From: Saprospiraceae bacterium
Lineage (GTDB): Bacteria; Bacteroidota; Bacteroidia; Chitinophagales; Saprospiraceae
Length of the DNA: 40,800 nt
Direction of reading: 5' to 3'
Assembly: GCA_026989035.1 (NCBI GenBank)
Contig: JALSKB010000197.1
Coordinates: 1 to 40,800, forward strand
Below the pieces are notes generated by a model. The model had not been told where the DNA came from, searched no databases, and was given only the letters and a program-made list of their open reading frames with translations. Position numbers and translations under genes: made by a program. The first letter of the stretch is position 1, and every line of letters begins with the position of its first letter. Of this stretch, positions 632 through 16,614 are shown one piece after another.

Positions 632-637
632 AACCTC

Positions 638-1507: not shown

Positions 1508-1543
1508 ATAAAAAAACTGAGCTGAAAACCTCAAGCCTCGAGC

Positions 1544-2557
1544 TTGTTTTCCTTAACTTACCGCACAAAAGTAGAGATTTTGTCGAAGACAATCAGGTGG
1601 TTGCTGGTTTTCATTTTACTCTGGGCCATTTACCGGCGACTGGAGGGGGAAGCTTTTCGCCTTTTTTTCGAGCAGCTGCCCATGGCCTGGACAGCGCGGA
1701 AGACCTGGCTCGCCGTAGCAGTGCTGCTGATGCCGGCAAACTGGCTGCTGGAAACGGCCAAATGGCAAACACTCATGGTGGTGCAAAATCGACAGCCGGG
1801 CTTCCGACAGGCCTTCAGAGCTGTCATGACAGGCCTGGCTCTTTCCTTGTTCACTCCGGCTCGATTGGGCGATTACCTGGGGCGCAGTTTGCAGGCAGGG
1901 CCTTTCGGCAAATGGAGAGCAGCAGGGGCAACGTTGCTGGGGCACATCGCTCAATGGCTGCTGCTGTTAGCTACCGGCCTGCCGGCTCTACTCCTGCTCA
2001 AAACACCAAACCACCTCCCCACCAATGCGCCTTTAATGCTCTTTGCCTTAACGGCTTTAGCCGGCACTTTTTTCTACCTCTCACTACCCCGATGGATACC
2101 CAAAGCCCGTTTCCTGAAAAAATACAAAGGATTGCACCGCCTAACTAAGCACCTACCCCAAACTGCAGCTTTTCCCTCCCAAACGCATTTGGCGAAAGCC
2201 CTCATCCTGGGCAGCCTGCGCTATGGTGTATTTAGCCTGCAACTCTACGCCCTGCTCCTCTTTTTCGGACTGCCGCTAAGCCCAAAAGAAGGCTTGGCAG
2301 GCATTTGGTGCATCTTCCTGCTGCAAAGCGGCCTGCCCCTGCCCTTCATCGGCAATGTGCTGCTGCGCACCGAACTGGCAGCTTGGATCTGGCCCCACAG
2401 CCCGACAACCGCTATTTTGGCCGGCATGAGCGCCCTTTTTGCACTAAATCTGGCTCTGCCGGCGTTACTTGGTGCGAGCTTCCTTGTCCAAATCAATGAA
2501 CAGCATCATGAATCCTATGAAAGCCATCAAACCGAAAATCACCCTGCTACTCCTTAG
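1544..2557 (+). CDS. Lysylphosphatidylglycerol synthase TM-domain / flippase-like membrane protein
   Basis: A 337-residue inner-membrane protein with about eight hydrophobic segments. The stretch with LALSLFTPARLGDYLGRS matches the conserved core of the LPG_synthase_TM (flippase-like, PF03706) superfamily, in which a (T/P)P-GR-GE-like motif follows a hydrophobic helix. It lacks the soluble GNAT-like domain of MprF, so a lipid-linked substrate is possible but unknown. The frame opens with TTG at 1544; another TTG at 1580 is equally possible. It is the first gene of a plus-strand run with DUF3108, DUF4230 and the symporter; its 3' end overlaps the DUF3108 start. Confidence 0.8.
   Translation: MFSLTYRTKVEILSKTIRWLLVFILLWAIYRRLEGEAFRLFFEQLPMAWTARKTWLAVAVLLMPANWLLETAKWQTLMVVQNRQPGFRQAFRAVMTGLALSLFTPARLGDYLGRSLQAGPFGKWRAAGATLLGHIAQWLLLLATGLPALLLLKTPNHLPTNAPLMLFALTALAGTFFYLSLPRWIPKARFLKKYKGLHRLTKHLPQTAAFPSQTHLAKALILGSLRYGVFSLQLYALLLFFGLPLSPKEGLAGIWCIFLLQSGLPLPFIGNVLLRTELAAWIWPHSPTTAILAGMSALFALNLALPALLGASFLVQINEQHHESYESHQTENHPATP
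1566..1573 (-). promoter_or_regulatory. Bacteroidota -7 element (TACTTTTG) for the DUF58 operon
   Basis: On the minus strand the sequence reads TACTTTTG, an exact match to TAnnTTTG, 59 bases before the DUF58 start. It overlaps the first codons of the divergent flippase frame, so the two transcripts would overlap or the flippase starts further in. No clear -33 TTTG was found. Confidence 0.4.
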
Positions 2558-3380
2558 CACCAGCCTGCTGATCTCGCTCTCCTTTTCCCCTTTCCTACCC
2601 ACTCCTCCCCAAACCGATGCCGAAACAATCCGCTACAACAGCTGCTCCATAGAAAACAACAGCTTCCGGGGAGGAGAAAAACTGGTCTATAAGATTTACT
2701 ACAACATGAATTTCGTGTGGATACCCGCCGGAGAAGTGGTCTTTACCGTAGAAGACAAAGGGGATGTCTTTCGCCTTTCGGCAAATGGAAAAACGTATCC
2801 CTCCTATGAATGGTTTTTCAAAGTGGACGACAAATACGAGTGCTATGTCGATAAAAGCACTTTGCTTCCCCGCCTCTCCATACGCGATGTACACGAAGGC
2901 AACTACACGGTTTTTGATCAGATGACTTTCGATCAGGAAAACTACATCATCCAATCCGATAGGGGGCCATCCCGTACCGACATCCGCCAACGCAACACCT
3001 ATGAACTGGATCGCTGCATCCACGACATCCTTTCCATCCTCTACTACATGCGCAACTTGGATTTTGCCAGCTACAGAAACGGCCAAAAGCTGGCCATAGA
3101 AATCTTCATGGACGGCGAAGCATGGCCCCTGAACGTGCAGTTCCTCGGCAAACGCCCCAACAAAAAAATCCACGGCCTGGGGCGCTTCGATGCCATTCAC
3201 TTCCGCCCGGAAACCATCGCCGGTGAGGTCTTCGACGAAGGCGCCCACATGAACATCTGGGTATCCGACGACGCCAACAAGGTGCCACTCATGATCGAAT
3301 CTCCGGTCTCCGTAGGCTCCATCAAAGCCGTGCTAAAAACCTATAAGGGCCTGCGCTACCCCCTTACCTCTAAAAAGTAA
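2517..3380 (+). CDS. DUF3108 domain secreted protein
   Basis: About 287 residues from the ATG giving MKAIKPKITLLLL, which starts a clear signal peptide. Two in-frame ATGs at 2496 and 2508 would lengthen the N-terminus. The mature part (FRGGEKLVYKIYYNMNFVWI, then AGEVVFTVED) is the typical DUF3108 opening, followed by a beta-rich body ending in KAVLKTYKGLRYPL. It is probably exported to the periplasm or outer membrane. The function of the family is not established. The start lies about 40 bases inside the end of the flippase gene, which points to translational coupling. Confidence 0.88.
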   Translation: MKAIKPKITLLLLSTSLLISLSFSPFLPTPPQTDAETIRYNSCSIENNSFRGGEKLVYKIYYNMNFVWIPAGEVVFTVEDKGDVFRLSANGKTYPSYEWFFKVDDKYECYVDKSTLLPRLSIRDVHEGNYTVFDQMTFDQENYIIQSDRGPSRTDIRQRNTYELDRCIHDILSILYYMRNLDFASYRNGQKLAIEIFMDGEAWPLNVQFLGKRPNKKIHGLGRFDAIHFRPETIAGEVFDEGAHMNIWVSDDANKVPLMIESPVSVGSIKAVLKTYKGLRYPLTSKK

Positions 3381-3421
3381 AGGAGCAAAAACTCAGCCAT
3401 CAAACTCACAAGCCTTAAACT

Positions 3422-4117
3422 TTGGCGAAAACACGTAACATCCTCTTCATAGGCTTACTGCTCACTGCCTTCCTGACCGGCCTGTGGGTCATGAAACGCT
3501 GGCTTACACCCCCACCAAAACCAACAGAACGAGCCACCGTGCTGGTCGAAAAAATCCAAAAAGTAGCCAAGCTCATCACGGTCGAAGGTTATTTCGTGGA
3601 GCACTACGACTACGGAGACCCCGATCCGGGGCCGTATTTCATCGGCCCCATTCCCAACTTACAAGCTTTTCTTCCCCGCAAAGAGGCCCATGTGCGCATC
3701 AAAGCCCGCGTAGCCATCGGCTACGATCTGGAAAGCATGAAAATAGAAGCCTATCCGGAACAAAAGCTCATCCGACTCAGCCAACTGCCCGAACCCGAAA
3801 TCCTCTCCATAGATTCTGAAATAGATCTCTTCGACGATCAATCCAGCATCTTCCGCCCCCTGACCGAAGAAGACCACATCCAGATTTATCGCGGTGCGCG
3901 AAAGAAAATCGAAGAAGCAGCCCGAAACAGTCGCCTACTCCCGGCTGCGCGCGAGCAGGGCAATGAAATGATCGACATCATGCGCTTCATGGCCGAACAA
4001 GCCGGTTGGCAGCTCCTGCTCGACAGCTTGTCAGCTCCAGCCGGCAACCCCTTGCCGGAGCAAACTCCCTCGCCGCCGGATACCCCTAAACAGCTCTGGG
4101 AAGGAGAAAACTACTAA
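3422..4117 (+). CDS. DUF4230 domain protein
   Basis: 231 residues with an N-terminal membrane anchor (ILFIGLLLTAFLTGLWVM), then a soluble domain. The pattern KLITVEGYFVEHYDYGD, followed by RIKARVAIGYDLESM and a late helix with ARKKIEEAA, fits the DUF4230 family. The start is a TTG at 3422 with the frame MAKTRNILF; the first ATG lies 69 bases further on and would cut the anchor. It sits 41 bases behind DUF3108 and belongs to the same run. Function unknown; an anchored, periplasm-facing protein is the likely topology. Confidence 0.82.
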   Translation: MAKTRNILFIGLLLTAFLTGLWVMKRWLTPPPKPTERATVLVEKIQKVAKLITVEGYFVEHYDYGDPDPGPYFIGPIPNLQAFLPRKEAHVRIKARVAIGYDLESMKIEAYPEQKLIRLSQLPEPEILSIDSEIDLFDDQSSIFRPLTEEDHIQIYRGARKKIEEAARNSRLLPAAREQGNEMIDIMRFMAEQAGWQLLLDSLSAPAGNPLPEQTPSPPDTPKQLWEGENY

Positions 4118-4195
4118 GCGTAGCACCGGCTGCCCTTGCCCCATCGCCATTCTTTTCGTTTCTTTGCAAGCAGCTCAGCAACAAAACAGCTCGCC

Positions 4196-6007
4196 ATGCA
4201 TCTATCCCAACTCGACTGGGGCATCATCCTCGCCTTCTTCACTCTTTCCCTACTCATTGGCCTGCTGACCAGCCGCCAAGCCGGCAAAGGATATGCCGAA
4301 TACTTCCTCTCCGGACGCAAGATGCCCTGGTGGTTGTTGGGGGTGTCTATGGTAGCCACCACCTTCTCCGCCGATACACCCAACCTGGTTACCGACATTG
4401 TCAGGCAAAACGGACTGGCCGGCAACTGGGTGTGGTGGGCCTTCCTGCTCACCGGCATGCTGACGGTCTTTGTCTATGCCCGCCTGTGGCGCCGCTCGGG
4501 CATCCTGACCGACCTGGAATTTTACGAACTGCGCTATAGCGGCCCCGAGGCGACCTTCCTGCGCGCTTTTCGGGCTTTCTATCTGGGTGTCTTCTTCAAT
4601 GCGATGATCATGGCCACAGTGATTTTGGCAGCCATCAAAATCTCCGCTGTCATGTTACCGGACTTGGATCCCTGGCGGGTTACGCTTTTTGTGCTGGCCA
4701 TTACAGCCATTTATACCAGTTTGGGAGGGCTGCGGGGCGTGCTACTTACCGACCTGCTGCAATTCGTCATCGCCATGGGCGGCACCATCTGGGCTGCTTA
4801 TGTCTTGGTTAATAAGGCGGAAATTGGTGGCTTGCAGGTCCTGCTTCAACAGCCCGCCGTAGAGGGAAAACTCCATTTTCTGCCCGACTTCAATGATTTT
4901 TCAGCCCTGTGGCCCCTGTTCATCATTCCCCTGGCCGTACAGTGGTGGAGCGTCTGGTATCCCGGAGCCGAACCCGGCGGCGGAGGCTACATCGTGCAGC
5001 GCATGCTGGCCGCTAAAGACGAGAAAAACGCCATGGGTGCGACGCTCTTTTTCAACATCGCCCACTACGCCCTGCGCCCCTGGCCCTGGGTCATCATCGC
5101 CCTCTGCTCTTTGGTCCTTTACCCCGATTTGGCGGCTTTAAAAGAGGCTTTCCCCAATATGCCTTCCGGCAAAATCGGGCACGATATGGCTTATCCGGCC
5201 ATGCTCACCCATTTGCCGAAAGGCCTCATAGGGCTGGTAGTAGCCTCCCTGCTGGCAGCCTTTATGTCCACCATTTCCACCCACCTGAATTGGGGCTCTT
5301 CCTACATCGCCCATGACCTGTGGCACCGCTTCATCGACCCCCGGGCCACCAACCGTCGCCTGGTACTCGTCGGCCGCCTCAGCACCTTATTGCTGCTGCT
5401 GCTCTCTGCACTGATAGCCCATTATGCCTTGCGCAATGCTCTGGATGCCTTCAACCTCATTCTGCAAATCGGTGCCGGCACCGGACTGCTGTTCATTCTA
5501 CGCTGGTTTTGGTGGCGCATCAACGCCTATAGCGAACTGACCGCCATGATCGTCTCTTTTCTGGTAGCTGTCTATTTTAAAAAGTGGGGCCCGGAAAACC
5601 TGGCCGACCACTGGCAACTCCTCATCGGCGTGGGCATCACCACCCTGGCCTGGGTAATGGTCAGCCTGCTGACCCCGCCCAGTTCGGAAAAACGCCTGCT
5701 GCACTTCTTTAAATTGGTCAGACCCCACGCCTACGGCTGGAAACCCCTCGTACAACGGGGCTTGCAAAACGGATATCTCCAAGAACAAGACTTGCAAACC
5801 GGCAGCTTCGCCCTCGAACTCAGCGGCATGTTCGTCGCTTGCTTCACCGTCTATGCTGCCCTCTTCGGCACCGGATACTGGATCTATGGTCAAACCGGCC
5901 AAGCCCTGGCCGCCACTGCCATTACTGCCCTGGGCTGCTTCCTGCTGTTCCGCATCTGGAAAAAGCTCCACAGCGCAGAAACAAAACTTGCTGAAAAAGG
6001 AGGATAG
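4196..6007 (+). CDS. Sodium:solute symporter family transporter
   Basis: 603 residues with 13 or more hydrophobic helices. Family marks include YFLSGRKMPWWLLGVSM near the N-terminus, SADTPN in the first unwound helix region, and YTSLGGLRGVLLTDLLQF, typical of SSS (PF00474) transporters that couple substrate import to sodium. I prefer the ATG at 4196 (MHLSQLDWG) because the TTG-initiated extension from 4136 is Ser/Phe-rich and not membrane-like. Substrate cannot be read from sequence. It is the last gene of the plus-strand run and faces the restriction module tail to tail with 27 bases between. Confidence 0.92.
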   Translation: MHLSQLDWGIILAFFTLSLLIGLLTSRQAGKGYAEYFLSGRKMPWWLLGVSMVATTFSADTPNLVTDIVRQNGLAGNWVWWAFLLTGMLTVFVYARLWRRSGILTDLEFYELRYSGPEATFLRAFRAFYLGVFFNAMIMATVILAAIKISAVMLPDLDPWRVTLFVLAITAIYTSLGGLRGVLLTDLLQFVIAMGGTIWAAYVLVNKAEIGGLQVLLQQPAVEGKLHFLPDFNDFSALWPLFIIPLAVQWWSVWYPGAEPGGGGYIVQRMLAAKDEKNAMGATLFFNIAHYALRPWPWVIIALCSLVLYPDLAALKEAFPNMPSGKIGHDMAYPAMLTHLPKGLIGLVVASLLAAFMSTISTHLNWGSSYIAHDLWHRFIDPRATNRRLVLVGRLSTLLLLLLSALIAHYALRNALDAFNLILQIGAGTGLLFILRWFWWRINAYSELTAMIVSFLVAVYFKKWGPENLADHWQLLIGVGITTLAWVMVSLLTPPSSEKRLLHFFKLVRPHAYGWKPLVQRGLQNGYLQEQDLQTGSFALELSGMFVACFTVYAALFGTGYWIYGQTGQALAATAITALGCFLLFRIWKKLHSAETKLAEKGG

Positions 6008-6034
6008 GGACTGGGCCAATCTTGCCCCCATTCA

Positions 6035-8548
6035 CTATTCCTCCACCGATTCAATGATGTAATCATCTGAGCTGATAACCGTGTCAAATAAGCCCACATC
6101 TTCACCTTCATGCCGGTTAATGCCAATGTACCTCAAACTGGCATCTTCATACCTCTTAAATTTGTACACGGCATCGTTCATCAAAGCGGCATTGAAAACA
6201 CCAAGGCTTACCAAAAGCTCAAAGTCCTTGACCTCCAGCCCTGTGACTTTTTTAAACAGGCCTTGCTCGAGCTGCGTGATGACATCTTTGAGGCTGCGCT
6301 CCCGATAATCGGTCAAATACATGAACACCGGAATTCTGGTTGCAAACTTGATGAGCTTTTCCTGAATTTTTTTCCTCAGACTTTTGATTTCTCTTTCTTC
6401 TTTGCTCAACTCCCTTTTCTGCTCTTTGGTTAGTTTTTCATCCGTGGCTTCTCGCTTCACCTTCTTTATAGCTTCCGACTTGTTGATGATGGTCTCAAGG
6501 TCTTGATTCAGGCTTCTGAATCCTTCAATGTTCATCAAGGCTTTCATGGCCGCCTCGTTGTTCATTAGGCGAGCCAGGGTAGCATTATCTACGTTCACGA
6601 GCAATGCACTTTCCCAACGCCTCGCCAACAGAGTTGCGGTGGTGCCGCTCATAGCCATATCCAGAACGCCTGCCGCATCAATGGGGCGCATGGAGCTACC
6701 ATCGTAAGCAAGAACAGGTAAAAAGTGAATGAACTCTGCTACACTCTTCTCGGGATTCGACTCATTGACGTTCAGGCGGCAAGCGTAATCGGCAATTTGA
6801 CTCAGCGCTCTGTTGGGCGCAAAATCAAACACATAGCATTCCTCTTTGATGATTTCCGTTTTGTTCGGCGACTTGCTATCCGGATTCTTTATTGTCCAGG
6901 GTGATTGCACCCGGAATGCTGCCTGAAAATAGGTTTCGGGGCTTGAGGAATTGCGCAACATGAGTATGCCCGTCCAGGGTCTTACCGTTACGCCCGTGGT
7001 CAATTTGCCGCAAGAGAGGGTAATGGTCTTGGTCTCCAGGGGGTTGTCCATGGCCTCCAACACGGGCGGCAAAGCCTGAACACCAATTCCTGCCTGGGTG
7101 CCTGCTGCCACCACAATCTTGTAATCGTGCCAAAAGGTGTTGTGTCGCTGCTGCATCAGGTTCCTCATGGCATAACAGGATGCCACACTGGGCAAAAACC
7201 AAAAGGTGTGGGTTAAAATCCTTTTTAAACGCACATCGGAAAAGGGCATGGGCGGTTTTTTTGCCCCCATTTTCAAGTTATCAAGTGTGGTTTCCCTGTG
7301 GCTGCCGCGAATCAGATCCAGCCATTTTTGCACTTCGCTTTCCAGCTTGAAACGGGCATTTTCACCTCGGCCTTCCGCAGCAAAGAAAACGTTCAAATCA
7401 AACTCGTTGAATTCGCCGCCAAGGGCAATTTCCCGAATGTCATCCGGCATGCGATAAGTGAGCATAACCATACGGGGAAGAGCTGCATAGGGGTTTTCTC
7501 CTTTCGACTCATCCCACTCCTCTTTGGCTTTTTGCTCGTCGGAATACGTCCAGTTAAAAATTTGCTCTTCGATAAATTCTCCGGAGGTGATGGCCCTAAA
7601 AGGCGTTCCGGACAGATAGAGAAAGTGATCGGTGGTGATGGGCAGAATGTCTTCTTCAAATTCTTTGACATCGCCGGTTTCCAAAATGCTCTCCTTCTCT
7701 TCGCTTTCAAAGAGGTCTTTGGCATTTTCCCGCCAGGCGCCGTAGTGGTATTCGTCGAAGATGACGCAATCCCAATGGGTATTATGCACCCATTGATTTT
7801 TGACTTTGATGCCTCCGGTATGGGGGTTTCTGCCCAGAAAGTCCTGAAAAGAACCAAAACAAACAAAGGGCCTGCTCTTGTCTGCCTCCTCATAAGACAG
7901 CCCCTGTCGGGAAATAAATTGCCAACCCTCAAAATCGACATGCGTCATCAAATCTTCTTCCCAGGCACTTTGCACCGCGGGCTTGAAAGTGAGCACCAAA
8001 ACCTTTTTCCAGCCCTGTTTTTTAGCCAGTTGGTAAGCGGCAAAGGTCTTGCCGAAACGCATTTTGGCATTCCACAAAAAACGGGGTGTTTTTCCCTCGT
8101 TTTCCGGCTCTGCTTTAAAGCTCTCAAAATACTGAACAGTTTTGTGAATGGCTCGCTCCTGCTCCGGCCGCATCTTGAAAGTGCGCGTGCGGTTTTCGAT
8201 GTTTTCTCTACGCTCCTTAATAGCCAGAATAGCCGCTTCCACATCCTCTACCTCACAGACAAACCACTCTCCATCAGTGTTTTTAAAACCCCTTTTCCTC
8301 AGGTAATGGTGTATGTCGTGATCGGAAAAGACAGAACCGTCGTTTCGGACAGCAGGTTCTTCCAGTAAAATCTCGAATTTTGCCCGGGTTGCTCCGACTT
8401 GTTCCTCTATGCGCTTGCGTGCATCTCTCGTCGTATAGCCGATCTTCAACTGCCCCTTCCGCGAAATGTCGTTGGGAAGGGTGTAAGCATATACTGTCGG
8501 TTTCAGCTCCGGTCGCTGTGGAAAAAAATCTTTTTTACGCATCGTCAT
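6035..8548 (-). CDS. GIY-YIG (T5orf172-like) nuclease fused to SF2 helicase; restriction subunit
   Basis: 837 residues. Residues about 18-105 form a GIY-YIG-type domain: VYAYTLP, LKIGYTTRDARKRI, a following IHHYLRKRGF and the acidic GEWF, most like T5orf172/MUG113. An SF2 helicase core follows: Walker A-like AKMRFGKT, the Walker B box DEYHYG, motif III SGTPF, and late motifs CGKLTTGVTVR and QAAFRVQSPW. A charged coiled-coil stretch lies near residues 690-740. The ATG at 8548 overlaps the stop of the upstream gene by one base (TGATG), implying coupled translation. With the two methylase-like genes it most likely forms the ATP-dependent restriction component of an R-M system. Confidence 0.85.
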   Translation of the reverse strand: MTMRKKDFFPQRPELKPTVYAYTLPNDISRKGQLKIGYTTRDARKRIEEQVGATRAKFEILLEEPAVRNDGSVFSDHDIHHYLRKRGFKNTDGEWFVCEVEDVEAAILAIKERRENIENRTRTFKMRPEQERAIHKTVQYFESFKAEPENEGKTPRFLWNAKMRFGKTFAAYQLAKKQGWKKVLVLTFKPAVQSAWEEDLMTHVDFEGWQFISRQGLSYEEADKSRPFVCFGSFQDFLGRNPHTGGIKVKNQWVHNTHWDCVIFDEYHYGAWRENAKDLFESEEKESILETGDVKEFEEDILPITTDHFLYLSGTPFRAITSGEFIEEQIFNWTYSDEQKAKEEWDESKGENPYAALPRMVMLTYRMPDDIREIALGGEFNEFDLNVFFAAEGRGENARFKLESEVQKWLDLIRGSHRETTLDNLKMGAKKPPMPFSDVRLKRILTHTFWFLPSVASCYAMRNLMQQRHNTFWHDYKIVVAAGTQAGIGVQALPPVLEAMDNPLETKTITLSCGKLTTGVTVRPWTGILMLRNSSSPETYFQAAFRVQSPWTIKNPDSKSPNKTEIIKEECYVFDFAPNRALSQIADYACRLNVNESNPEKSVAEFIHFLPVLAYDGSSMRPIDAAGVLDMAMSGTTATLLARRWESALLVNVDNATLARLMNNEAAMKALMNIEGFRSLNQDLETIINKSEAIKKVKREATDEKLTKEQKRELSKEEREIKSLRKKIQEKLIKFATRIPVFMYLTDYRERSLKDVITQLEQGLFKKVTGLEVKDFELLVSLGVFNAALMNDAVYKFKRYEDASLRYIGINRHEGEDVGLFDTVISSDDYIIESVEE

Positions 8549-8928
8549 CACTTTTCGTTAATCACTTCCCAATATCCGCCTCTATCGGGGCCTATTCGTT
8601 TTAGTTTGTTTTGTTCTTTCAATTTAGCTATCTGCCATTCTACGCCCCTTCTTGTCAAACCTGTTATTTTGGAGAGTTGATTTATGGTTATTTCGGGATT
8701 CTCTTTTATTGCCTTGATAATTTTCTCCACAGTTTTCTCCACAGTTTTCTCCACAGTTTTCTCCGAACCTTCTAAAGGAAAAACCATTCTGGTAAAACTG
8801 TCACCGAACACAAAGCACTCTTTGGAATAAACCCTCAAAATCCGGGGCACACCGGAACCGAGCTGTTCCACCATGTCCAAATCCTTAGGCATGCTTTGTT
8901 TGTATTCTATGCAGTTGGTCTCGGTCAT
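8548..8928 (-). CDS. Internally deleted AlbA_2/RecG-like regulator remnant with winged helix
   Basis: 126 residues. The first eleven (MTETNCIEYKQ) match the usual beginning of a Schlafen AlbA_2 regulator; the next part (DLDMVEQLGSGVPRILRVY) is the far C-terminal ATPase-like part of the same protein family, which normally lies some 300 residues later. A tandem EKTV linker and a C-terminal winged helix (ITINQLSKITGLTRRGVEWQ) follow. The simplest reading is an in-frame internal deletion that kept both ends. The frame stays open and its stop overlaps the helicase start, so it may persist as a translation-coupling leader or a small DNA-binding protein. Confidence 0.7.
   Translation of the reverse strand: MTETNCIEYKQSMPKDLDMVEQLGSGVPRILRVYSKECFVFGDSFTRMVFPLEGSEKTVEKTVEKTVEKIIKAIKENPEITINQLSKITGLTRRGVEWQIAKLKEQNKLKRIGPDRGGYWEVINEK
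8721..8764. repeat. 12-bp in-frame tandem repeat (EKTV linker)
   Basis: Three perfect copies of TTTTCTCCACAG plus eight bases of a fourth. On the coding (minus) strand they encode EKTVEKTVEKTVEK between the ATPase-like remnant and the winged helix. The unit is a multiple of three, so slippage would change linker length without a frameshift. Confidence 0.95.
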
Positions 8929-8976
8929 AGTCTATTCCATCGGGCGGATCATGGATTCGATCATGCCGTGGTGGTG

Positions 8977-9004
8977 GTAGAGACGCAATGCATTGCGTCT
9001 CTAC
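8977..9004. repeat. Perfect 28-bp palindrome between restriction genes
   Basis: The arm GTAGAGACGCAATG (8977-8990) is followed directly by its exact reverse complement (8991-9004), with no spacer. It begins 11 bases after the stop of the adenine methylase gene. I recall palindromes with the GTAGAGACGC arm as dispersed repeats in cyanobacteria and some Bacteroidota; this is memory, not a search. In RNA it would form a strong hairpin and could lower expression of the downstream remnant and helicase. Confidence 0.9.
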
Positions 9005-9015
9005 ATGGCGTCGTT

Positions 9016-10515
9016 TCATTCCACAGATTTAATTTTTGAATCTATAAATGCCCATTCTTCATCGGTTATCCCCCAACGTTCCCGCAAAATCTCATCGGTG
9101 AATTCTATTTCGTATTTTTCTAAATATGGAACAAAAATAAATTTCTCACGAGTTACATCTTGAGACACTACTGTCTGCAAAAGCAAAAAACGGGTGATTT
9201 TAGTAAACAGGTAAGACTTAAAGGATAACACCTCTTTTTTTGTGTCAAAAGCACAGGCCACCAACCAGGATTCTGTACAAACTTCCCCGGGCTTTGCGAT
9301 TTTCACATTTCCACTGTAATAAAACCCTATGGGTTTTGAAAAGTCGGTTTGGCCGGCGATAGGAGCACGAGGAATCAACAACTTCCATTTATCTTTGAGT
9401 TCATTGGGGTCCTTCACGTCATTGGGGTCGGCATACCGCAAACCCAATTTTTGAGTAAAATGACAAGGTACACCTGTTTTGACAGGTTTGTAGTGACCTC
9501 TTATACCAAAAGGCTTCGATGGAGAAATCACATTATTTAAAAACACCTTCTCCCGCCGAACCACTTTTCTAATAATTGGGACCGCTTGGCTATGTCTAAT
9601 AAATATAGAGAACTCATTTAATGCTCTTTCAGATGTAACTTTTTTATCATCATATTTATTTGTTACCTCACACAATCCTTTGTGGTCTCTATCCCATAAA
9701 AAATAGCATACCCCACCTGCAATATCTACTCCCGGAAAAACATTTGAAGAATTTTCAAAATCAACCAATTTCCTAATTCTATTGTCGTTAAGCATCTCAT
9801 TTCTATAATCGTCTAATCCTTTCCCCCCCGCATACCACCTTGCCGGAGTAATCATAACCAAATATCTTGGGCTCAGTTTTTTAGCTTGATTTACAAATTT
9901 ATGATAAACAGGGCTTGCACTTCTTCCATGCCCCCCATCGCTCAGCTGATAAGGCGGGTTGCCAATAATGACGTCGAATTTCATGTTAAAGATTTTTTCC
10001 GGTTCGTCGGTATGGATAAATTGATAGGCGTAGGTTTCCAGGCCATCGGCTCTATCGTACACCTCCTGATTGGCTCGGCAAAAGGTACATTTCCCGTTTT
10101 GCCAGGTATGTTGAACGTTGTCGAAGATGATGTTGCCCTGTTCGTTTTCGAACTCCGTGCAGAAGGAGTACTTGCCATTGGCCTTTTTGCTGCCATAGAC
10201 CGTTCGGCGCGAGAGCAGGGAGGTCAGTTCGGTAATGGCGATGCCGAACAGCTGGTTTTTGAAGATGTGGTTGGCCCGTTCTTGGAGATCGGGGATTTGC
10301 TTTTCCAGCCCTTTCATCAGGCGTTTGGCAATTTCCCGCAGGAAGACGCCCGATTTGCATACGGGGTCGAGGAAAGTGGTTGTTTTGCTTTCAAACAGCT
10401 CCTGAGGCAGGATGTCCAGCATTTCATTGACCAATTTGGGCGGGGTAAACACCTCGTCGTTGCTCAAATTGGCAATGGCGTCTAAGACATCGGGGTTGTA
10501 ATTTACCTCAATCAT
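9016..10515 (-). CDS. Eco57I-like N6-adenine DNA methyltransferase subunit
   Basis: 499 residues. The N-terminus has EVFTPPKLVNEMLDIL, then motif I as FLDPVCKSGVFL (residues 48-59), where the usual reading is DPACGSG. The catalytic motif IV is intact: DVIIGNPPYQLSDG with NPPY at 186-189. A CTFC pair near residue 143 may be part of a small metal site. The C-terminal half is the likely target-recognition region (RAPIAGQTDFSKPIGFYYSG). The start overlaps the end of the 218-residue upstream gene by eight bases, so the pair should be made together. It most likely methylates adenine in the recognition site, probably with the small partner. Confidence 0.88.
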   Translation of the reverse strand: MIEVNYNPDVLDAIANLSNDEVFTPPKLVNEMLDILPQELFESKTTTFLDPVCKSGVFLREIAKRLMKGLEKQIPDLQERANHIFKNQLFGIAITELTSLLSRRTVYGSKKANGKYSFCTEFENEQGNIIFDNVQHTWQNGKCTFCRANQEVYDRADGLETYAYQFIHTDEPEKIFNMKFDVIIGNPPYQLSDGGHGRSASPVYHKFVNQAKKLSPRYLVMITPARWYAGGKGLDDYRNEMLNDNRIRKLVDFENSSNVFPGVDIAGGVCYFLWDRDHKGLCEVTNKYDDKKVTSERALNEFSIFIRHSQAVPIIRKVVRREKVFLNNVISPSKPFGIRGHYKPVKTGVPCHFTQKLGLRYADPNDVKDPNELKDKWKLLIPRAPIAGQTDFSKPIGFYYSGNVKIAKPGEVCTESWLVACAFDTKKEVLSFKSYLFTKITRFLLLQTVVSQDVTREKFIFVPYLEKYEIEFTDEILRERWGITDEEWAFIDSKIKSVE

Positions 10516-11164
10516 TTTCTGCCAGCTTTAAAAAATGAGACAACGGATATTCTTTTACGGGTGTAGGTAAAAATGCAAGGTCGGTATCATACACAGACTC
10601 AAAAAGCCCTCCCGGCACTTTGGAGGCTTCGGCTTTGAGCAAATTGTCCAAAGTAAAATCCCTTCTTTTGATCATGCTTCCCTGTACCAACGACCATTCG
10701 GAAAACACAATCGGCTCCTCTTTATCCGTTAAAAGGGTCAAGGCATCTCCCCGTAAGATGTTGCGCTTGAGGATAAATTTCACGCTGTTTCTGCATTCTT
10801 CCTTGCAGGAATCTTTGTACTTGCCGGAGTACTGCTCGTCAAAAAGTTCGAAAAGGCGCTGCCTGGCTTCTTCCACATTGTCCTGCAGGAGGTCAATGCC
10901 GTAAACACTCGAAACGGCCAAGACGGCATACCGCTCATACTCCGGCTGGCTCTTGCCATATCGCTGCATGACGACCTGCAATTTTCTGCGCAAGATTTCT
11001 ACGAGAAAGTTGCCTGTACCGCAAGCCGGTTCCAAAAAGCGTGAATCAATCCTCTCGGTTTCCTGTTTGACCAAATCGAGCATGTCCTTAACCAGCCACT
11101 CGGGCGTAAACACCTCGCCGTGGTCAATCACTCTCTTCCTGGATTTTATCTGTTTTTCCGCCAT
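10508..11164 (-). CDS. Small SAM-binding methyltransferase-like subunit lacking NPPY
   Basis: 218 residues from the ATG at 11164 (a GTG at 11176 adds four). It opens like its neighbour (EVFTPEWLVKDMLDLV) and has a canonical motif I, FLEPACGTGNFL, at about 44-55, followed by GIDLLQDNVEEARQRL, the acidic loop of motif II. Where motif IV would be, after ILRGDAL, it reads PIVFSEWSL, so no NPPY. It therefore looks able to bind SAM but not to methylate adenine alone. First gene of the restriction operon; probably a structural or cofactor-binding partner of the 499-residue methylase. Confidence 0.82.
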   Translation of the reverse strand: MAEKQIKSRKRVIDHGEVFTPEWLVKDMLDLVKQETERIDSRFLEPACGTGNFLVEILRRKLQVVMQRYGKSQPEYERYAVLAVSSVYGIDLLQDNVEEARQRLFELFDEQYSGKYKDSCKEECRNSVKFILKRNILRGDALTLLTDKEEPIVFSEWSLVQGSMIKRRDFTLDNLLKAEASKVPGGLFESVYDTDLAFLPTPVKEYPLSHFLKLAEND

Positions 11165-11197
11165 TAGATCGAACACCTTATATCACCCGATCACAGT

Positions 11198-11217
11198 AAA
11201 GCGCTACAAGGCGCTTT
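11198..11217 (-). promoter_or_regulatory. Leader hairpin of the restriction operon
   Basis: AAAGCGC and GCGCTTT form a perfect 7-bp stem around a 6-base loop, between the candidate -7 element and the first start codon. It has no U-tract on the minus strand, so an operator or leader structure is likelier than a terminator. Confidence 0.4.
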
Positions 11218-11248
11218 CACACCTCGGGCTTAAAAGATTGCTGCCTCC

Positions 11249-11256
11249 CAAAGATA
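11249..11256 (-). promoter_or_regulatory. -7 element (TATCTTTG) for the restriction operon
   Basis: The minus strand reads TATCTTTG, an exact TAnnTTTG match, 85 bases before the first start codon of the restriction operon. No convincing -33 box. Confidence 0.5.
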
Positions 11257-11298
11257 CAATCTCTTTTTCTTTTACAGACTTTTCCCGTTTGGCTTCTT

Positions 11299-14200
11299 TT
11301 AAAAGTTGAGCCTGTCGAGCAAGGAGCGCAGGTTCTGCGGCTTCATCAGATCCGTTTTAAAAGAAAAGGTAATGCGGGAAAAAAAGCTTGACTTGCCATC
11401 TTGCTTGTAGAGGCTGACGAGGTTTTCCGAAGAGAGCACGGGCAGGTAAACGCCAAAATCTTCCCCTATTTTAAAGACAAAACCACCGCTCCACCACAGT
11501 TGATCCGCAAAGGTCTTTCCCGCAGCAATGGGACGCGCATCGGACACATAGGCTAAGTCAAAATAAGGTTTAAGCGGAAAAGCTCGAGGAGCAGGCTGCG
11601 GCAGGGAAGCTTCAAAGTTGAACGACAGCATAAAGTCATTGCTATTACCTGCTTCACCCAGATAAGGTCGGCTGAAGGCGTTTTTAAAACCGCCGTCTCG
11701 AATGTCGATCTGCCTGGCCCAAAACTCTCCGTTGTTGTTGCGGCCCAGATACAAACCGTCGTATTTGTAGTCGTCGTGATCGGAGTACCCCTGGCCGGTA
11801 AGGTTAAAAGCTCCCGGATAGATGCCTCCTCGATTGCGGGCATCGTTTTGCAAAAACCACCCCAGAAAAACGCGCAATTTAATGCGGCGCTTGACATCGT
11901 ACTCGTATCGCTGAACCCAATTTGCCGAAAGGCGAACATAAGACCAGCGCTCAGGCTCATCTCCTCCCAGAGGCACATCGTAAGCGTGATACTCCAAAGC
12001 TACATCCCCCTCAAAGGGCATCAACAAAGCGTCGTTGCGCAGACCGTAGCGCAGCTCGTGATACAGCTTGGGGCGATAACGCGTCTCCACAAGCTCGTAG
12101 TCCGGCCCCTCGCCGAAATAACCGTATTCCTCTAAAATGGTCGGCATGCGATACTGCACATAACTGCTTTTGCGAGAGCCCAGTTCCTTTTTAAATTCCC
12201 AACGCAGATAAGGCTCCAAGCGATAATAGTCGGTGTAATAGTTCCAAGTCCAGTTGTAGTTGTAAGTGAAATGCCTGAAATTCAGGCCATATCGAAAAGC
12301 GCGCAAGTTTTTTTCTCTTTTCGGATGGTAGTTCACTTGCAGAGAAGCCATGCCGTTGAGCTGTTTTGTAACAAAGGAGTACAGGGCTAACACGCCAAAT
12401 TCTACGGGTTTTTCAGCCAGGGCATAATTGTGCAAACCGGCACCCAACATGAATTTGTCGTAATCGTTCCAGGCCAGCAAAGGCAGGTAGTATAAATCCC
12501 GATGCTCCTCTTTGTCTATGCCTGACAAAAGGCGAAAATGGAAAGGCCTTCCCCTGCCGGCTTTGTCAAATTGCAACTGATTGTCCTTTCGATACAAATC
12601 GGGCGTGAGGTGTAGAGGGTCTATGACCAGATGAGAGGGCTGAGCTGTTCCTCTGGGAATCAGGCAAAGCACGGTATCCGTTTCCAGCGTTCCATCCCGC
12701 CAAAGAGCCAGCAGGGTAGAATCTCCCTGCATCATGAACAGGGGATAGGGCGCTGCCACATCACCTCTGTTTTCAATGACTGCCCGATAGACATCGACAG
12801 CAGGAGGAGCATGGGCAGCCGCATCTGTCGAATCCAGTTTTTCCATCTTCACCAGTTTGTAGTCCATGCGAGGTGTACCTTCGAGGAAACCATCGAAAAA
12901 CCAGGAAAGATCCTTGCCTGTACTGCGCTCCAAGCTGGCCTGCATGTCTTCGGGATAGGGGTGTTTAAACTTCCATTCGGCAAAGTAGTCGTGCATAGCG
13001 CGGTCAAAAACACCTCTTCCCAGATAGTGTTCCAGATAGCGGAAGAGATGGGCCGGAAATTCGTAAGCTGACAACAAGTAATTGATCATGCTGAGGCTGT
13101 CGGAATGCGTATCCGGCGCCTGATGGTAATTGCGCCTGCGCTGGAGGTCGTAGAGCACTTCCGAAACAGAAACCAAACTATCCTCCAACAAAAACCTGAG
13201 CTGAGAGTCTTCGCTTTCGTAATACTCCCTCATATAGCTGTGGTCGTAATAGGAATTGCAGCCTTCGTCCATCCAGGCACGACGGCGCTCGTTGGTGCCG
13301 AATATACCGTAAAACCAATTGTGCCCCACTTCATGGGTGATCACAGCATCTAAGCCTTTAGCACCGTTCCACGAACTGATGATGGTAACCATGGGATATT
13401 CCATGCCGCCCCCTGCACCCATGGGGCCGGAGACTGCTGTTGCTTGCGGCCAGGGATATTCTCCCACCCGATCGGAGTAATACTCCAGTGCACGAGCCAC
13501 GAAAAAAGCCGCCTGATCCCAAGGATCTAAATGCGTTTTTCGAAAAAAGGCCCAGGTCGGTATTTTTTTGCCGGAAGGCAAAACCGCATGGCTGCTGTCC
13601 ACCAAGTAGCGCTTATCGGCAAACCAAGCAAAATCGTGCACATTTTCAGCCTTGTAGTGCAAGGTCTTTTTTTCCGGGGAAGAAGGCGGGAAGGGGTCTT
13701 CCGTTGCGTTCACCACTGCCGAGTCCGTTTTAAGCAAAAGACGTGTTTCCCCGACCAATCCGGCCAGCCAGGCCTTTTCCTCTTCATTTTGAAGCTCTCC
13801 TGTGGCGGCTACGCGATAATTGGCCGGCAAAGTGATGAAGACTTCAAAAGAGCCGAATTCCGAGTAAAACTCTCCCATGTCGAGATAAGGCATGGGATGC
13901 CAGCCTTCCTTATCGTAAACCGCCGGCTTGGGATACCACTGGCTCATTTGGTAGGACTGCCCGCTGTGCCCAAAGCGCGAAACCGTTTTCGGAATTTTCT
14001 CTTCAAACTCAATTTCCAGATGAACTTCTTCGCCCGGCAACAGAGTATGTGCCAGCTCCACTTTGACAATATCCGGCTCTCCCTGCCAGGAAGAGAAGCT
14101 CAGCTCCTGCCGACTGTCGGAAACGGGATAAGCCGAGGCAAAAAAACGGATTTGCTCATATCCTCCGAGCTCTTCCTCCGGAGCATAGTAAAAATTCGAA

Positions 14201-14460
14201 TGCCCCAAGCGCAATTGCTGACGGGAAAAGGCCGAATTGCGATCGCCAAAGGCATTGCCCCAGAGGTGAAAAATCAAATAGTCCAGTGTATCCGGTGAGT
14301 TGTTTGTATAGACAATTTTTTCAATGCCACTGATGCGATGCGCCTCGTCGTCCAATTCGACCTCTATGCGGTAATCCACGCGCTGCTGAAAGTAATTTCC
14401 CTGCGCACTCAACAGAACGTTTACAGAAAAGAAAAGGAATAGCGTTGAAATCGTTCTCAT
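11299..14460 (-). CDS. M1-family metallopeptidase with C-terminal predicted outer-membrane beta-barrel
   Basis: 1053 residues with a signal peptide ending near LLSAQG. The peptidase half has the substrate-binding GGGMEYP (350-356) and zinc site HEVGH (376-380) with the third ligand Glu at 399 in AWMDEG, spaced 18 residues as in M1 aminopeptidases. From about residue 640 the sequence becomes alternating and aromatic-rich, with many Tyr/Trp turns, and ends in LDRLNF with a terminal Phe, as in outer-membrane barrels. Soluble M1 enzymes are usually 600-900 residues. I infer a surface- or periplasm-displayed aminopeptidase carried on its own barrel. It stands alone on the minus strand. Confidence 0.88.
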   Translation of the reverse strand: MRTISTLFLFFSVNVLLSAQGNYFQQRVDYRIEVELDDEAHRISGIEKIVYTNNSPDTLDYLIFHLWGNAFGDRNSAFSRQQLRLGHSNFYYAPEEELGGYEQIRFFASAYPVSDSRQELSFSSWQGEPDIVKVELAHTLLPGEEVHLEIEFEEKIPKTVSRFGHSGQSYQMSQWYPKPAVYDKEGWHPMPYLDMGEFYSEFGSFEVFITLPANYRVAATGELQNEEEKAWLAGLVGETRLLLKTDSAVVNATEDPFPPSSPEKKTLHYKAENVHDFAWFADKRYLVDSSHAVLPSGKKIPTWAFFRKTHLDPWDQAAFFVARALEYYSDRVGEYPWPQATAVSGPMGAGGGMEYPMVTIISSWNGAKGLDAVITHEVGHNWFYGIFGTNERRRAWMDEGCNSYYDHSYMREYYESEDSQLRFLLEDSLVSVSEVLYDLQRRRNYHQAPDTHSDSLSMINYLLSAYEFPAHLFRYLEHYLGRGVFDRAMHDYFAEWKFKHPYPEDMQASLERSTGKDLSWFFDGFLEGTPRMDYKLVKMEKLDSTDAAAHAPPAVDVYRAVIENRGDVAAPYPLFMMQGDSTLLALWRDGTLETDTVLCLIPRGTAQPSHLVIDPLHLTPDLYRKDNQLQFDKAGRGRPFHFRLLSGIDKEEHRDLYYLPLLAWNDYDKFMLGAGLHNYALAEKPVEFGVLALYSFVTKQLNGMASLQVNYHPKREKNLRAFRYGLNFRHFTYNYNWTWNYYTDYYRLEPYLRWEFKKELGSRKSSYVQYRMPTILEEYGYFGEGPDYELVETRYRPKLYHELRYGLRNDALLMPFEGDVALEYHAYDVPLGGDEPERWSYVRLSANWVQRYEYDVKRRIKLRVFLGWFLQNDARNRGGIYPGAFNLTGQGYSDHDDYKYDGLYLGRNNNGEFWARQIDIRDGGFKNAFSRPYLGEAGNSNDFMLSFNFEASLPQPAPRAFPLKPYFDLAYVSDARPIAAGKTFADQLWWSGGFVFKIGEDFGVYLPVLSSENLVSLYKQDGKSSFFSRITFSFKTDLMKPQNLRSLLDRLNF

Positions 14461-14466
14461 GGCAAG

Positions 14467-14474
14467 TAATTTTG
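14467..14474 (+). promoter_or_regulatory. -7 element (TAATTTTG) for the asparagine-synthase-like gene
   Basis: An exact TAnnTTTG match 20 bases before the ATG at 14494. A purine-rich AGGAG, unusual for this window, lies at the right distance before that start codon and supports it. Confidence 0.5.
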
Positions 14475-14493
14475 AACGCTAAGATAGGAGCAA

Positions 14494-16188
14494 ATGGCAG
14501 AACGACCTTTTTTTTTAGCTTACAGCCCAAATTTACCCGACCAAAGCATGCTCAGCCTATTCAAAAACGGTCGATTTTCTTTTTACCCCGATCAGGAGCC
14601 AGCCGGCCTGCTCAGCAACTGTTCGCTCTGGCAAACGCCTTCGGGAGACAGGCTCTGGCTATGGGGTGAAGCTTACGGCGATTTTCCGGGCCTTTCGGCA
14701 AAAACATACGCCTGCGAGCATGCTCCTTTGCCTGCGGGAAACGAACGGGCAGCTGTCTTTGCCTCCGCTTTTTTCTCTGCCTTTCGGCAAAATCGGGCCG
14801 AAGCCCTGCTACGCCAAACCAACGGAGCTTTTGCCCTGGCTCTGTGGGATGCCCAAGGCAGGGAACTGCACTTTTTTACCGACCCCGCAGGTTTCCAACG
14901 AATCTACCTGTACGCCTCGGAGCACGAACTGGCCTGGTCGGATCGCTTGCGGGACTTTAAGGTACTACCCACAAGCTGGTCGCTGGACCAAGCCGCCTTA
15001 AACGGCTTTCTGCAAAAGGGATATCTCAGCGGGGAGACCACCTGGCTGCAGGGCGTGCGCTTACTCAAAGCAGCCATACACGAAACCTTTGCATGGAAAG
15101 ACGGACGCATAGAACGAACCGCACAAAAGCGCTATTGGCAGTGGCCGGCTCCACTTCCGCCCGACGAAGCTCCCGATTTTGACGAAGCCGTAGAGGAGGC
15201 TGAATACCTGCTGCGGGGATCCGTGCGCAGAACCCTGCAAGCAGGAAAACACTGTGGCATCTTGCTCAGCGGAGGCTTGGATTCTCGTTTGATACTGGCT
15301 ATGGCCCTGAAAGAGGGCTTTAAGCCCGATGGCCTTACCCTTGGCGCGGCAGAGAGCAAGGATCTGCAAACCGCAGCACAAGTGGCCCGCCTGGCCGGAA
15401 TAGCCTTCAAACCGGCCGTCCTCACACCGGAAAACTGGCTGCAAAAACACCGGCAAGCCTGCCTGCTCACCGACGGCATGGTCAATGTATTACACCTGCA
15501 CGAAGCACCCTTCCTACCCGAATGGGTATCCGAGTACGAGCTGCTCATTGACGGCATAGCCATAGAGGTTGTGCTCGGAGGACTCTGGCATGGTCACCTG
15601 GATAAACAACCTCTGCTCACCAAACTCCGAGGCCAAGCCCTCCCGAAGTCCTTTGCATCTGACGAAGCATACTATTACAACAACACCCGGATCGGCTTCC
15701 TCATGGACCGACGCATTCGACACTTCACCCTCATCGCCAATCAGCTGCTCGTGCATTACACCCGAAGGTTGATGCCCTTTGCCGACATAAACTTTTTTCG
15801 GTTTATGCTGCAGCTACCCGATAGCTATCGCAAGCATTACCGCTTGTTTTTCCATCTAGCCCTGCGTTACTATCCCGCATTCTTTCGGGACATCCCTTGG
15901 GCCAAAACCGGCTTGCCCATAAGCCATCCCCTCACCCGCCCACTGCTGCACCTGCACTGGCCGGGCATACGCACCCTCCTCTTCGGTACCCGCGACGCCA
16001 TAGCTCCATACGACCAATGGCTGAGGCAGGAGCCGGCACACAGCTTTATCCGCAACGAACTCCAGCTCTCGAAAAGTCGCTTGGCCGCACATATCGGCAG
16101 CAATCCATTTGGCGAAAGCCCCAAAAGAGCGGAAAACCTCTTTCGAACTTTGACAGCCGAATGGATTTTGCGCTTTTTCCACCTGTAA
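14494..16188 (+). CDS. Asparagine synthase-like protein with degenerate glutaminase domain
   Basis: 564 residues in two parts. The N-terminal part has the glutaminase-fold layout (ALLRQTNGAFALALWD, then FFTDPAGFQRIYLY), but the chain begins MAERPF: the nucleophile Cys2 required for glutamine hydrolysis is missing. The C-terminal part has an intact PP-loop, LLSGGLDSRLILAM, with SGGLDS at 259-264, for ATP-driven adenylation. It would form an amide with free ammonia or another amine, as some asparagine synthase relatives in natural-product and polysaccharide pathways do. The AGGAG before the ATG supports the start. No neighbour reveals the substrate. Two copies of the 13-base mini-hairpin motif lie in its first 300 bases. 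Confidence 0.85.
   Translation: MAERPFFLAYSPNLPDQSMLSLFKNGRFSFYPDQEPAGLLSNCSLWQTPSGDRLWLWGEAYGDFPGLSAKTYACEHAPLPAGNERAAVFASAFFSAFRQNRAEALLRQTNGAFALALWDAQGRELHFFTDPAGFQRIYLYASEHELAWSDRLRDFKVLPTSWSLDQAALNGFLQKGYLSGETTWLQGVRLLKAAIHETFAWKDGRIERTAQKRYWQWPAPLPPDEAPDFDEAVEEAEYLLRGSVRRTLQAGKHCGILLSGGLDSRLILAMALKEGFKPDGLTLGAAESKDLQTAAQVARLAGIAFKPAVLTPENWLQKHRQACLLTDGMVNVLHLHEAPFLPEWVSEYELLIDGIAIEVVLGGLWHGHLDKQPLLTKLRGQALPKSFASDEAYYYNNTRIGFLMDRRIRHFTLIANQLLVHYTRRLMPFADINFFRFMLQLPDSYRKHYRLFFHLALRYYPAFFRDIPWAKTGLPISHPLTRPLLHLHWPGIRTLLFGTRDAIAPYDQWLRQEPAHSFIRNELQLSKSRLAAHIGSNPFGESPKRAENLFRTLTAEWILRFFHL
14528..14535 (-). promoter_or_regulatory. Possible -7 element (TAAATTTG) for the M1 peptidase
   Basis: The minus strand reads TAAATTTG, 68 bases before the peptidase start and inside the divergent gene. 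It is the only exact match found close upstream. Confidence 0.3.
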
Positions 16189-16224
16189 AATGCTCCAAGC
16201 AAGCGCCAAAAACACCCTTTTGTG

Positions 16225-16232
16225 TATCTTTG
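16225..16232 (+). promoter_or_regulatory. -7 element (TATCTTTG) for the small-protein/mutL transcript
   Basis: Exact TAnnTTTG match, 17 bases before the ATG of the 107-residue gene that precedes mutL. Confidence 0.5.
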
Positions 16233-16248
16233 TTGAAAACGCATTGCC

Positions 16249-16572
16249 ATGAAATGGTTACTCAAACCCCATCAGCGCCCCCGCCACCTGCGCTTTCAGT
16301 ATAAACCGCGCTTTTGGGACCCTCAAAAAGAACGCATCGAAGAGCTAAAAGCCCAAATAAAACAACGCCAGGAACAAGAAGCCCAAAGAGAAATCGACAA
16401 AGCCATCCTCAAAGAACGCGTGCGTAAAGGCCTGCGCCACGGCCGCCCCACCAACAAATTTGAACGCCGCAACCTGGTTCAAAGGGAAAACCGCAAGGCC
16501 AACCTCAGGCTTTTCCTGATTTTAATTGCACTTTTGTGGCTGACTTATAAACTCTTGCTCGTATATTTGTGA
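16249..16572 (+). CDS. Small basic protein with C-terminal membrane anchor
   Basis: 107 residues. The N-terminal part is very basic (KPHQRPRHLRFQYKPRFWDP), the middle is a charged helix likely to form a coiled coil (residues 25-65), and the end is a single hydrophobic helix (LRLFLILIALLWLTYKLLLVYL). I recall small proteins with a similar N-terminal KPRF/Y motif next to mutL in other Bacteroidota, but no function is established. It has its own -7 element and precedes mutL by 87 bases, so it may be in the same transcript. Confidence 0.75.
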   Translation: MKWLLKPHQRPRHLRFQYKPRFWDPQKERIEELKAQIKQRQEQEAQREIDKAILKERVRKGLRHGRPTNKFERRNLVQRENRKANLRLFLILIALLWLTYKLLLVYL

Positions 16573-16601
16573 TTTAGGCCCGAGAGGCCGTGAGTCGGTA
16601 A

Positions 16602-16614
16602 GGCTTTCGCCAAA
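16602..16614 (+). repeat. Dispersed 13-base mini-hairpin motif (intergenic copy of a family of 19)
   Basis: GGCTTTCGCCAAA between the small-protein gene and mutL. Exact copies of GCCTTTCGGCAAA on the plus strand start at 1900, 2773, 14690, 14779, 18195, 23374, 34148 and 38835, and on the minus strand cover 5212-5224, 11921-11933, 26715-26727 and 34794-34806. Exact copies of GGCTTTCGCCAAA start at 16602, 25974 and 30013 (plus) and cover 764-776, 2188-2200 and 16108-16120 (minus). One copy with a swapped pair, GTCTTTCGACAAA, is at 33964-33976. The near-copy CGCTTTCGCCAAA is at 26927-26939. Nearly all copies are followed by A or T. Confidence 0.9.

What the first reader, a model, noticed from the sequence alone, without database searches (positions are those of the whole stretch)
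8977..9004. Perfect 28-bp palindrome inserted within the restriction operon
An uninterrupted, spacer-free palindrome of 14-base arms is far beyond chance. It sits between the methylase and the nuclease/helicase. It may be a mobile REP-like repeat that landed here, and in RNA it could hold nuclease expression below methylase expression.
Basis: partly seen in the sequence, partly recalled or inferred. Interest (0 to 1): 0.55.

Follow-up and report, generated by a model that had tools for sequence, protein, structure and literature searches.

The report
Double-foot REP palindrome in restriction operon
A perfect 28-letter DNA palindrome between restriction-modification genes turns out to be one copy of an already published kind of small dispersed repeat (a double-foot REP) linked to a transposase family, so it is a real, probably mobile repeat but not a new kind of element.

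Summary
The palindrome is real: GTAGAGACGCAATGCATTGCGTCTCTAC, 14-base arms, no spacer, the longest spacer-free one found in the window. It is not unique. The own genome has 4 places within 3 mismatches; the exact 28-mer occurs in at least 115 stretches whose titles name several phyla. The arms stay fixed while the 10-base core varies but stays palindromic. The methylase 3' ends of 11 relatives lack it.

Clustering genes near copies led to a RAYT-like transposase family. Its genes often carry palindromes of this build inside their reading frame and beside it, and it co-occurs with the palindrome (36 of 41 against 93 of 255 genomes). This fits TnpA-REP subclass 2.4 with "double foot" REPs, published by Quentin et al. 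2018 (PMC6006769). That transposase was not found in the own genome or two congeners, so this copy looks like an orphan.

It sits at a scar: the stub of a second methylase 3' end follows it. An effect on the operon is plausible (strong hairpin 11 nt after the methylase stop) but untested. Verdict: new member of a known kind.

The parts
8977..9004 (.). Perfect 28-bp palindrome, double-foot GTAG...CTAC REP
9016..10515 (-). Eco57I-type N6 adenine methylase gene (M); its stop is 11 nt before the palindrome
10508..11176 (-). Upstream methylase part (MmeI_Mtase / N6_Mtase match)
8934..8976 (-). Stretch after the palindrome whose last part codes MIESMIRPME*, read as the stub of a second methylase 3' end; 25 of 27 nt identical to the 3' end of the G299 methylase gene
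8548..8928 (-). 126-aa winged-helix ORF, HTH_24; read as a piece of a larger regulator (inference)
   Evidence: no tblastn match in the loci of 11 relatives
6035..8551 (-). ResIII helicase with T5orf172 domain, the putative restriction part

Best explanation
The palindrome is an orphan copy of a double-foot GTAG-type REP. Shown: it belongs to a dispersed family with fixed GTAGAGACG arms and a covarying palindromic core, enriched between genes, and this family is physically and statistically tied to genes that fit TnpA-REP/RAYT subclass 2.4, many of which carry such a palindrome in frame and beside the gene. Inferred: the RAYT, an HUH nuclease, recognises the hairpin in single-stranded DNA and copies or moves it, as proposed for other REPs. 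Inferred: in this genome the transposase has been lost, was missed in the draft, or the copy came in with the restriction-modification genes. Inferred and untested: in the methylase mRNA the hairpin just after the stop codon may protect the upstream message from 3' exonucleases and lower what lies downstream.
For: Own genome 4 places within 3 mismatches, reversed-pattern control 0. Copies are depleted inside ORFs (43 of 131, null 109.5; viral 34 of 115, null 96.8) and lie close to gene 3' ends (median 30 and 23 nt, null 97 and 98.5). The largest protein cluster near copies is a RAYT-like transposase, 11 loci; the four family members scanned match NCBIfam NF047646 at E 9e-16 to 3e-6, below its cut-off. 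Of 30 RAYT loci fetched as best matches 18 have a perfect palindrome inside the ORF and 10 one within 250 bp, with one elsewhere; the loci total 107 kb. L441 there has the exact 28-mer on both sides. Of 20 lower-ranked ones 12 have one inside and 7 one near. Co-occurrence 36 of 41 against 93 of 255 genomes, Fisher p 3.7e-10. Motifs NHFH/NHIH, WQ, YIxNNP fit those listed for subclass 2.4, for which double-foot REPs and in-frame REP insertions are published. In a phage pair one relative lacks the repeat after the protease gene.
Against: No family RAYT found in G000, G001, G002 and none in 5 of 41 palindrome-bearing phylum genomes, G000 among them. Copy number in the own genome is low, and the 8-base arm alone is not over-represented there (32 and 30 against 54 and 58 for the control). 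No flanking direct repeat of 4 nt or more in 122 exact copies, and no clean empty site for this very copy: in two congeners nothing of the operon but the palindrome matched. Co-occurrence is not corrected for relatedness, and some palindromes counted lie inside the RAYT gene itself; with the two genomes whose only copy is such (G462, G577) moved, it is 34 of 39 against 95 of 257, p 2.1e-9. The profile was built from palindrome-linked RAYTs (answered in part).
Confidence: 0.85

Rival explanations
1. Operator: the palindrome is the binding site of the winged-helix protein encoded just downstream, which would control the operon like a restriction C protein.
For: A winged-helix ORF starts 48 nt after the palindrome; perfect symmetry suits a dimer.
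Against: The same 28-mer occurs at unrelated loci in many genomes and in the congeners, where nothing else of the operon matched. Pieces of the ORF match other annotated regulators in separate records, none covering 80% of it.
Confidence: 0.04
2. Transcription terminator or attenuator native to the operon.
For: Copies lie near gene 3' ends and the RNA hairpin is strong: 112-nt region -32 kcal/mol, z -3.5. At the C25 intergene the congeners have a terminator-like hairpin with a T run where G000 has a palindrome copy (read by eye).
Against: No T run follows on the transcribed strand; the scan lists two terminator-like sites, both on the plus strand, one overlapping the palindrome (shuffles: mean 0.8). 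Long copies in the congeners have T before and A after the hairpin. Absent from relatives' methylase 3' regions.
Confidence: 0.08
3. Dispersed palindrome that spreads without a RAYT, for example by template switching or gene conversion of hairpins.
For: 12 of 122 exact copies sit in longer perfect palindromes with unrelated outer arms; no family RAYT found in the own genome and two congeners; no target duplication.
Against: RAYT linkage and co-occurrence.
Confidence: 0.1

Closest known systems
Double-foot REP of TnpA-REP subclass 2.4 (RAYT group 4), Quentin et al. 2018, PMC6006769
   Same: GTAG at one end and its complement CTAC at the other; long stem; [quoted passage not shown] Cyanobacteria, Bacteroidetes and other phyla.
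   Different: This copy is in a genome where no subclass 2.4 gene was found, at low copy, between restriction-modification genes. Their figures were not seen, so whether this exact sequence is among theirs is unknown.
GTAG-tagged REP families, Di Nocera et al. 2013, PMC3733652
   Same: Short palindrome with GTAG, mostly between genes, often close to gene ends; its TAG can serve as stop codon.
   Different: There GTAG is described as an unpaired motif at one end; here it pairs with CTAC and the palindrome is perfect. Their consensus figure was not seen.
Rickettsia palindromic elements (as described in PMC3733652)
   Same: Palindromes found in frame inside genes.
   Different: CGTC-tagged in that paper, and CGTC repeats are not associated with transposase genes there; the window copy is between genes.

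Membership tests
Double-foot GTAG REP (subclass 2.4) | 5' GT[AG]G and 3' C[TC]AC at the foot of one hairpin | tested here: met
   GTAG...CTAC at 8977-9004; definition read
Double-foot GTAG REP (subclass 2.4) | Dispersed repeated copies in the host genome | tested here: met
   4 places within 3 mismatches; 6 places with the arm pattern; low copy
Double-foot GTAG REP (subclass 2.4) | Linked to subclass 2.4 tnpA-REP genes, beside or inside them | tested here: met
   Met in other genomes: exact 28-mer inside or beside RAYT genes
Double-foot GTAG REP (subclass 2.4) | Cognate transposase in the same genome (usual, not required; PMC3733652 says REPtrons may be missing because eliminated) | tested here: not met
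   0 matches in G000, G001, G002 (drafts); passage read
Double-foot GTAG REP (subclass 2.4) | Mobilised by the RAYT | not testable with these tools
   needs an experiment
TnpA-REP subclass 2.4 (the linked transposase) | Motifs NH[IFV]H, WQ, YIxNNP and a variable insert between HuH and Y | tested here: met
   Alignment A1 of 13, (MPNHFH/NHIH, one row MPDHFH; YIxNNP in most rows); motif table read; the paper's own profiles were not run
Intrinsic terminator | G+C-rich hairpin followed by a T run on the transcribed strand | tested here: not met
   sequence after the hairpin
C-protein operator | Site private to the operon and bound by its regulator | tested here: not met
   Privacy not met: copies elsewhere; binding not tested

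The most novel reading that the evidence does not exclude
The REP is the joint at which these restriction-modification genes were rebuilt: recombination or TnpA-REP cutting at REP copies joined a complete methylase gene to the 3' stub of another methylase plus a foreign regulator fragment, so that REPs act as exchange points for modules of restriction systems.
Probability: 0.18. Interest if true: 0.55.

Novelty: new member of a known kind. Interest (0 to 1): 0.33.

Why it matters
It ties a striking palindrome to a published REP/transposase pair and shows how widely one sequence of it reaches: the exact 28-mer in genomes whose titles name several phyla, and the same arms in viral contigs, with a fixed arm and a covarying core. 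For the operon it marks a likely rearrangement scar and gives a concrete test of whether a REP just after a methylase stop codon changes the methylase to nuclease ratio.

Tried and rejected
Pfam Y1_Tnp (PF01797) as RAYT probe: 17 of 22 palindrome-bearing genomes had a hit. Of the 30 loci fetched there plus L035, two had a full palindrome of this family in the flanks (L195, two copies; L190, one copy about 1 kb away) and two more a single arm (L200, L205). I first read this as evidence against a RAYT link; the four members of the relevant family that I scanned match no Pfam model at E 0.001, and the family came up only by clustering neighbouring ORFs.

The first gene-context count counted copies twice; replaced. 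INPHARED phages with the padded palindrome: no match. Plasmids: 8 records, best places 80-99% identical, E 0.06 to 0.7. Rfam at gathering score: no match in the window. Paper search for six palindrome strings: 0 papers. Search for the 9-base arm: 143 papers, the 20 listed titles looked unrelated and none was opened.

Empty-site search among fetched loci: 13 pairs printed, none a clean exact 28-bp insertion; several are composite repeats or tandem growth. The C25 copy of the own genome has no counterpart at the same intergene of G001 and G002, but that intergene does not align well enough to set insertion borders.

Limits of the RAYT counts. In one search, 40 of 55 near-complete ORFs have an internal palindrome (arm 9 or more), but part of these loci were fetched because of the palindrome, and in L036 and L441 it lies only near the start of the open frame, before the likely start codon. 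The 20 lower-ranked genes were taken as consecutive rows, leaving out one partial match among them (G426 C20). In one search not all first-look candidates were scored for G319, G324, G325 and G330 (117 each), so the miss in G325 is provisional. Several of the 30 genes hold stop codons.

Papers. Quentin 2018: outline with abstract, passages, sections 12, 23, 31. Di Nocera 2013: outline with abstract, sections 5, 6, 16, passages. Nunvar 2010: passages only. Others: search listings only. Figures and supplements were not seen.

Full report
Observation. The palindrome at 8977-9004 is exact, spacer-free and the first of 12 inverted repeats listed for the window; by chance one would expect about 1.5e-4 such palindromes in 40.8 kb. 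Around it on the minus strand: methylase part 10508-11176, Eco57I-type methylase 9016-10515, palindrome 11 nt after its stop, a winged-helix ORF 8548-8928, and a ResIII helicase with a T5orf172 domain 6035-8551.

A dispersed family. The own genome (3.12 Mb, 215 contigs, 97.2% complete) has 4 places within 3 mismatches, with 0 for the reversed control. With the arm pattern TAGAGACG-N4..16-CGTCTCTA it has 6 places; 12 of the 60 genomes of that search, the own one included, have a match, and the control pattern hits in one (G027). The 8-base arm alone is not over-represented in the own genome. In a phylum sample 41 of 296 genomes have arms with a 10-base core, and the control pattern hits in one (G566). 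By record titles these are mostly Bacteroidetes and relatives, and also Planctomycetaceae, Candidatus Kuenenia, Desulfamplus, Fibrimonadales, Chitinispirillia, a Wallbacteria and an Anaerolineales bin; many are MAGs, so some assignments may be binning errors. Of 115 distinct copies there, 104 have at most one mismatch in the five core pairs, against 2 of 21 control sites. So the arms are fixed and the core varies as a palindrome.

Where copies lie (a simple longest-ORF caller). In the loci fetched for the exact 28-mer, 131 distinct copies (arms with any 10-base core) fall 32 between codirectional, 18 between convergent, 12 between divergent genes, 43 inside ORFs, 3 partly inside, 23 at edges; a random null gives 109.5 inside. 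Median distance to a gene 3' end is 30 nt (null 97), to a 5' end 136 (null 113). In the viral loci 34 of 115 are inside ORFs (null 96.8), the median 3' distance is 23 nt (null 98.5), and copies are near 5' ends too (39, null 94). Of 122 exact copies none has a flanking direct repeat of 4 nt or more, and 12 extend outward by 8 to 14 more paired bases with differing sequence. Of 5 exact places fetched from the congeners, 3 extend by at least 10 to 13 bases (one of them cut by the contig end), one by 3, one not at all.

The linked transposase. Clustering ORFs within 600 bp of copies gave, as largest cluster, 11 loci with one protein family. The four members scanned match the NCBIfam REP-associated tyrosine transposase model at E 9e-16 to 3e-6, below its cut-off, and no Pfam family at E 0.001. 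In 8 of the 11 the palindrome lies inside the gene and is translated, as RDAMHCVST or VETQCIASL, mostly between the HuH region and NKFGPQSKN; in L036 it lies before the likely start, in L117 and L123 outside the gene. The third frame holds a stop. A profile of 13 members finds the family in 129 of 296 phylum genomes at E 1e-8. Genomes with the palindrome have it in 36 of 41 cases, those without in 93 of 255 (Fisher p 3.7e-10). This is not corrected for relatedness, and some palindromes lie in the RAYT gene itself; moving the two genomes whose only copy does so gives 34 of 39 against 95 of 257, p 2.1e-9. Of 30 loci fetched as best matches, 18 have a perfect palindrome of arm 10 or more inside the ORF and 10 one within 250 bp; elsewhere in these loci (107 kb in all) there is one. 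In L441 the exact 28-mer stands on both sides of the gene. Because the profile was built from palindrome-linked members, I took 20 lower-ranked matches (consecutive rows, one partial match left out): 12 of 20 have an internal palindrome of arm 9 or more, 7 of 20 one nearby, with 6 palindromes in 29 kb of other flank; at arm 10 or more the numbers are 9, 7 and 2. There the internal palindromes often have other sequences, which suggests that different lineages have their own. The family also matches in 16 of 21 palindrome-bearing genomes reached through named records, some matches being weak or partial, and in none of G000, G001, G002.

What is known. Quentin et al. 2018 (PMC6006769; abstract, passages and sections 12, 23, 31 read) describe TnpA-REP subclass 2.4, to which RAYT group 4 is assigned, with motifs NH[IFV]H, WQ, YIxNNP, abundant in Cyanobacteria and Bacteroidetes and scattered across phyla, with "double foot" REPs (GT[AG]G and C[TC]AC) and REPs inserted in frame within the transposase gene, generally between HuH and Y. 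The family found here fits. Di Nocera et al. 2013 (PMC3733652) describe GTAG REPs, their place near gene 3' ends, their TAG serving as stop codon, and that the transposase unit can be missing. The window palindrome is therefore a member of a known kind.

The site. In 11 relatives whose methylase 3' end was read, no arm pair of this family lies in the last 300 nt of the gene or the stretch held after it (209 nt in L175, 1437 to 1497 nt in the others); L174 has one GTAGAGAC, 114 nt after the stop and without a partner. In G274, whose methylase is 71% identical, the helicase frame begins at the methylase stop. In the window the palindrome is followed by 43 nt whose last part codes MIESMIRPME*, an ending like that of several related methylases; 25 of 27 nt match the 3' end of the G299 gene (score 44, maximum 22 in 200 shuffles). 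The methylase before the palindrome has its own ending like that of G274. So the palindrome appears to lie at a joint between one whole methylase gene and the stub of another, followed by an ORF whose residues 15-52 and about 70-125 match annotated RNA-binding-domain, ATP-binding or Fic-family proteins in separate plasmid records. In G001 and G002 (drafts; 40 of 74 and 40 of 69 candidates scored) nothing of the operon but the palindrome matched, so the insertion cannot be dated there. GC is 39% in 9001-10000 against 46-58% in the other 19 kilobase steps of 1-20000.

Mechanism. Shown: family, linkage, and difference of site occupancy between relatives. A viral pair shows gain or loss: L476 has a near-perfect copy after the protease gene, with an extra arm before it whose TAG ends that gene; L482 has a plain TAA and no copy. 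At a second site L476 has one double-foot hairpin, L482 an inverted pair with decayed inner feet, L481 a single-foot GTAG hairpin, in keeping with Quentin's remark that a double foot can arise by deletion within an inverted pair. Inferred: the RAYT moves or copies the hairpin as single strand. Inferred and untested: the effect on the operon. The RNA hairpin is strong (112-nt region -32 kcal/mol, z -3.5) and no terminator is called on the transcribed strand. Effects of REPs on mRNA stability and on translation are recalled, with titles seen in the reference list shown.

Verdict. The missing cognate transposase and the scar are the unusual points of this copy.

Noticed in passing
L002, L003, L004, L012, L021, L030 (own genome): A repeated secreted-protein C-terminal stretch (ends EEEVSGQVVLLR or similar) is followed directly by this palindrome or one arm of it; in L003 and L021 the TAG of GTAG is the stop codon. 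That it is a sorting domain is recalled, not tested.
   Followed up: partly
L035 1492-1950 (own genome C69): A Y1 transposase gene with many copies nearby of another repeat, CTGCGGGTTGACACCCGCAGTTACTAG; motifs NHTH and YINRQ recall subclass 1.2 of Quentin 2018.
   Followed up: no
L476, L481, L482 (viral contigs): Related phages have one double-foot hairpin, a single-foot GTAG hairpin, or an inverted pair at the same intergene after the capsid gene.
   Followed up: partly
G048, contigs C66, C81, C118, C128, C154: Palindromes lie in or within about 120 bp of partial matches to the RAYT family, as if decayed transposase genes leave palindromes behind.
   Followed up: no
window 8548-8928: The winged-helix ORF may be an internal deletion product of a larger regulator.
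   Followed up: partly
L037, L058, L065, L071 (Planctomycetaceae bin): Composite repeat in which this palindrome takes the place of part of another hairpin.
   Followed up: no
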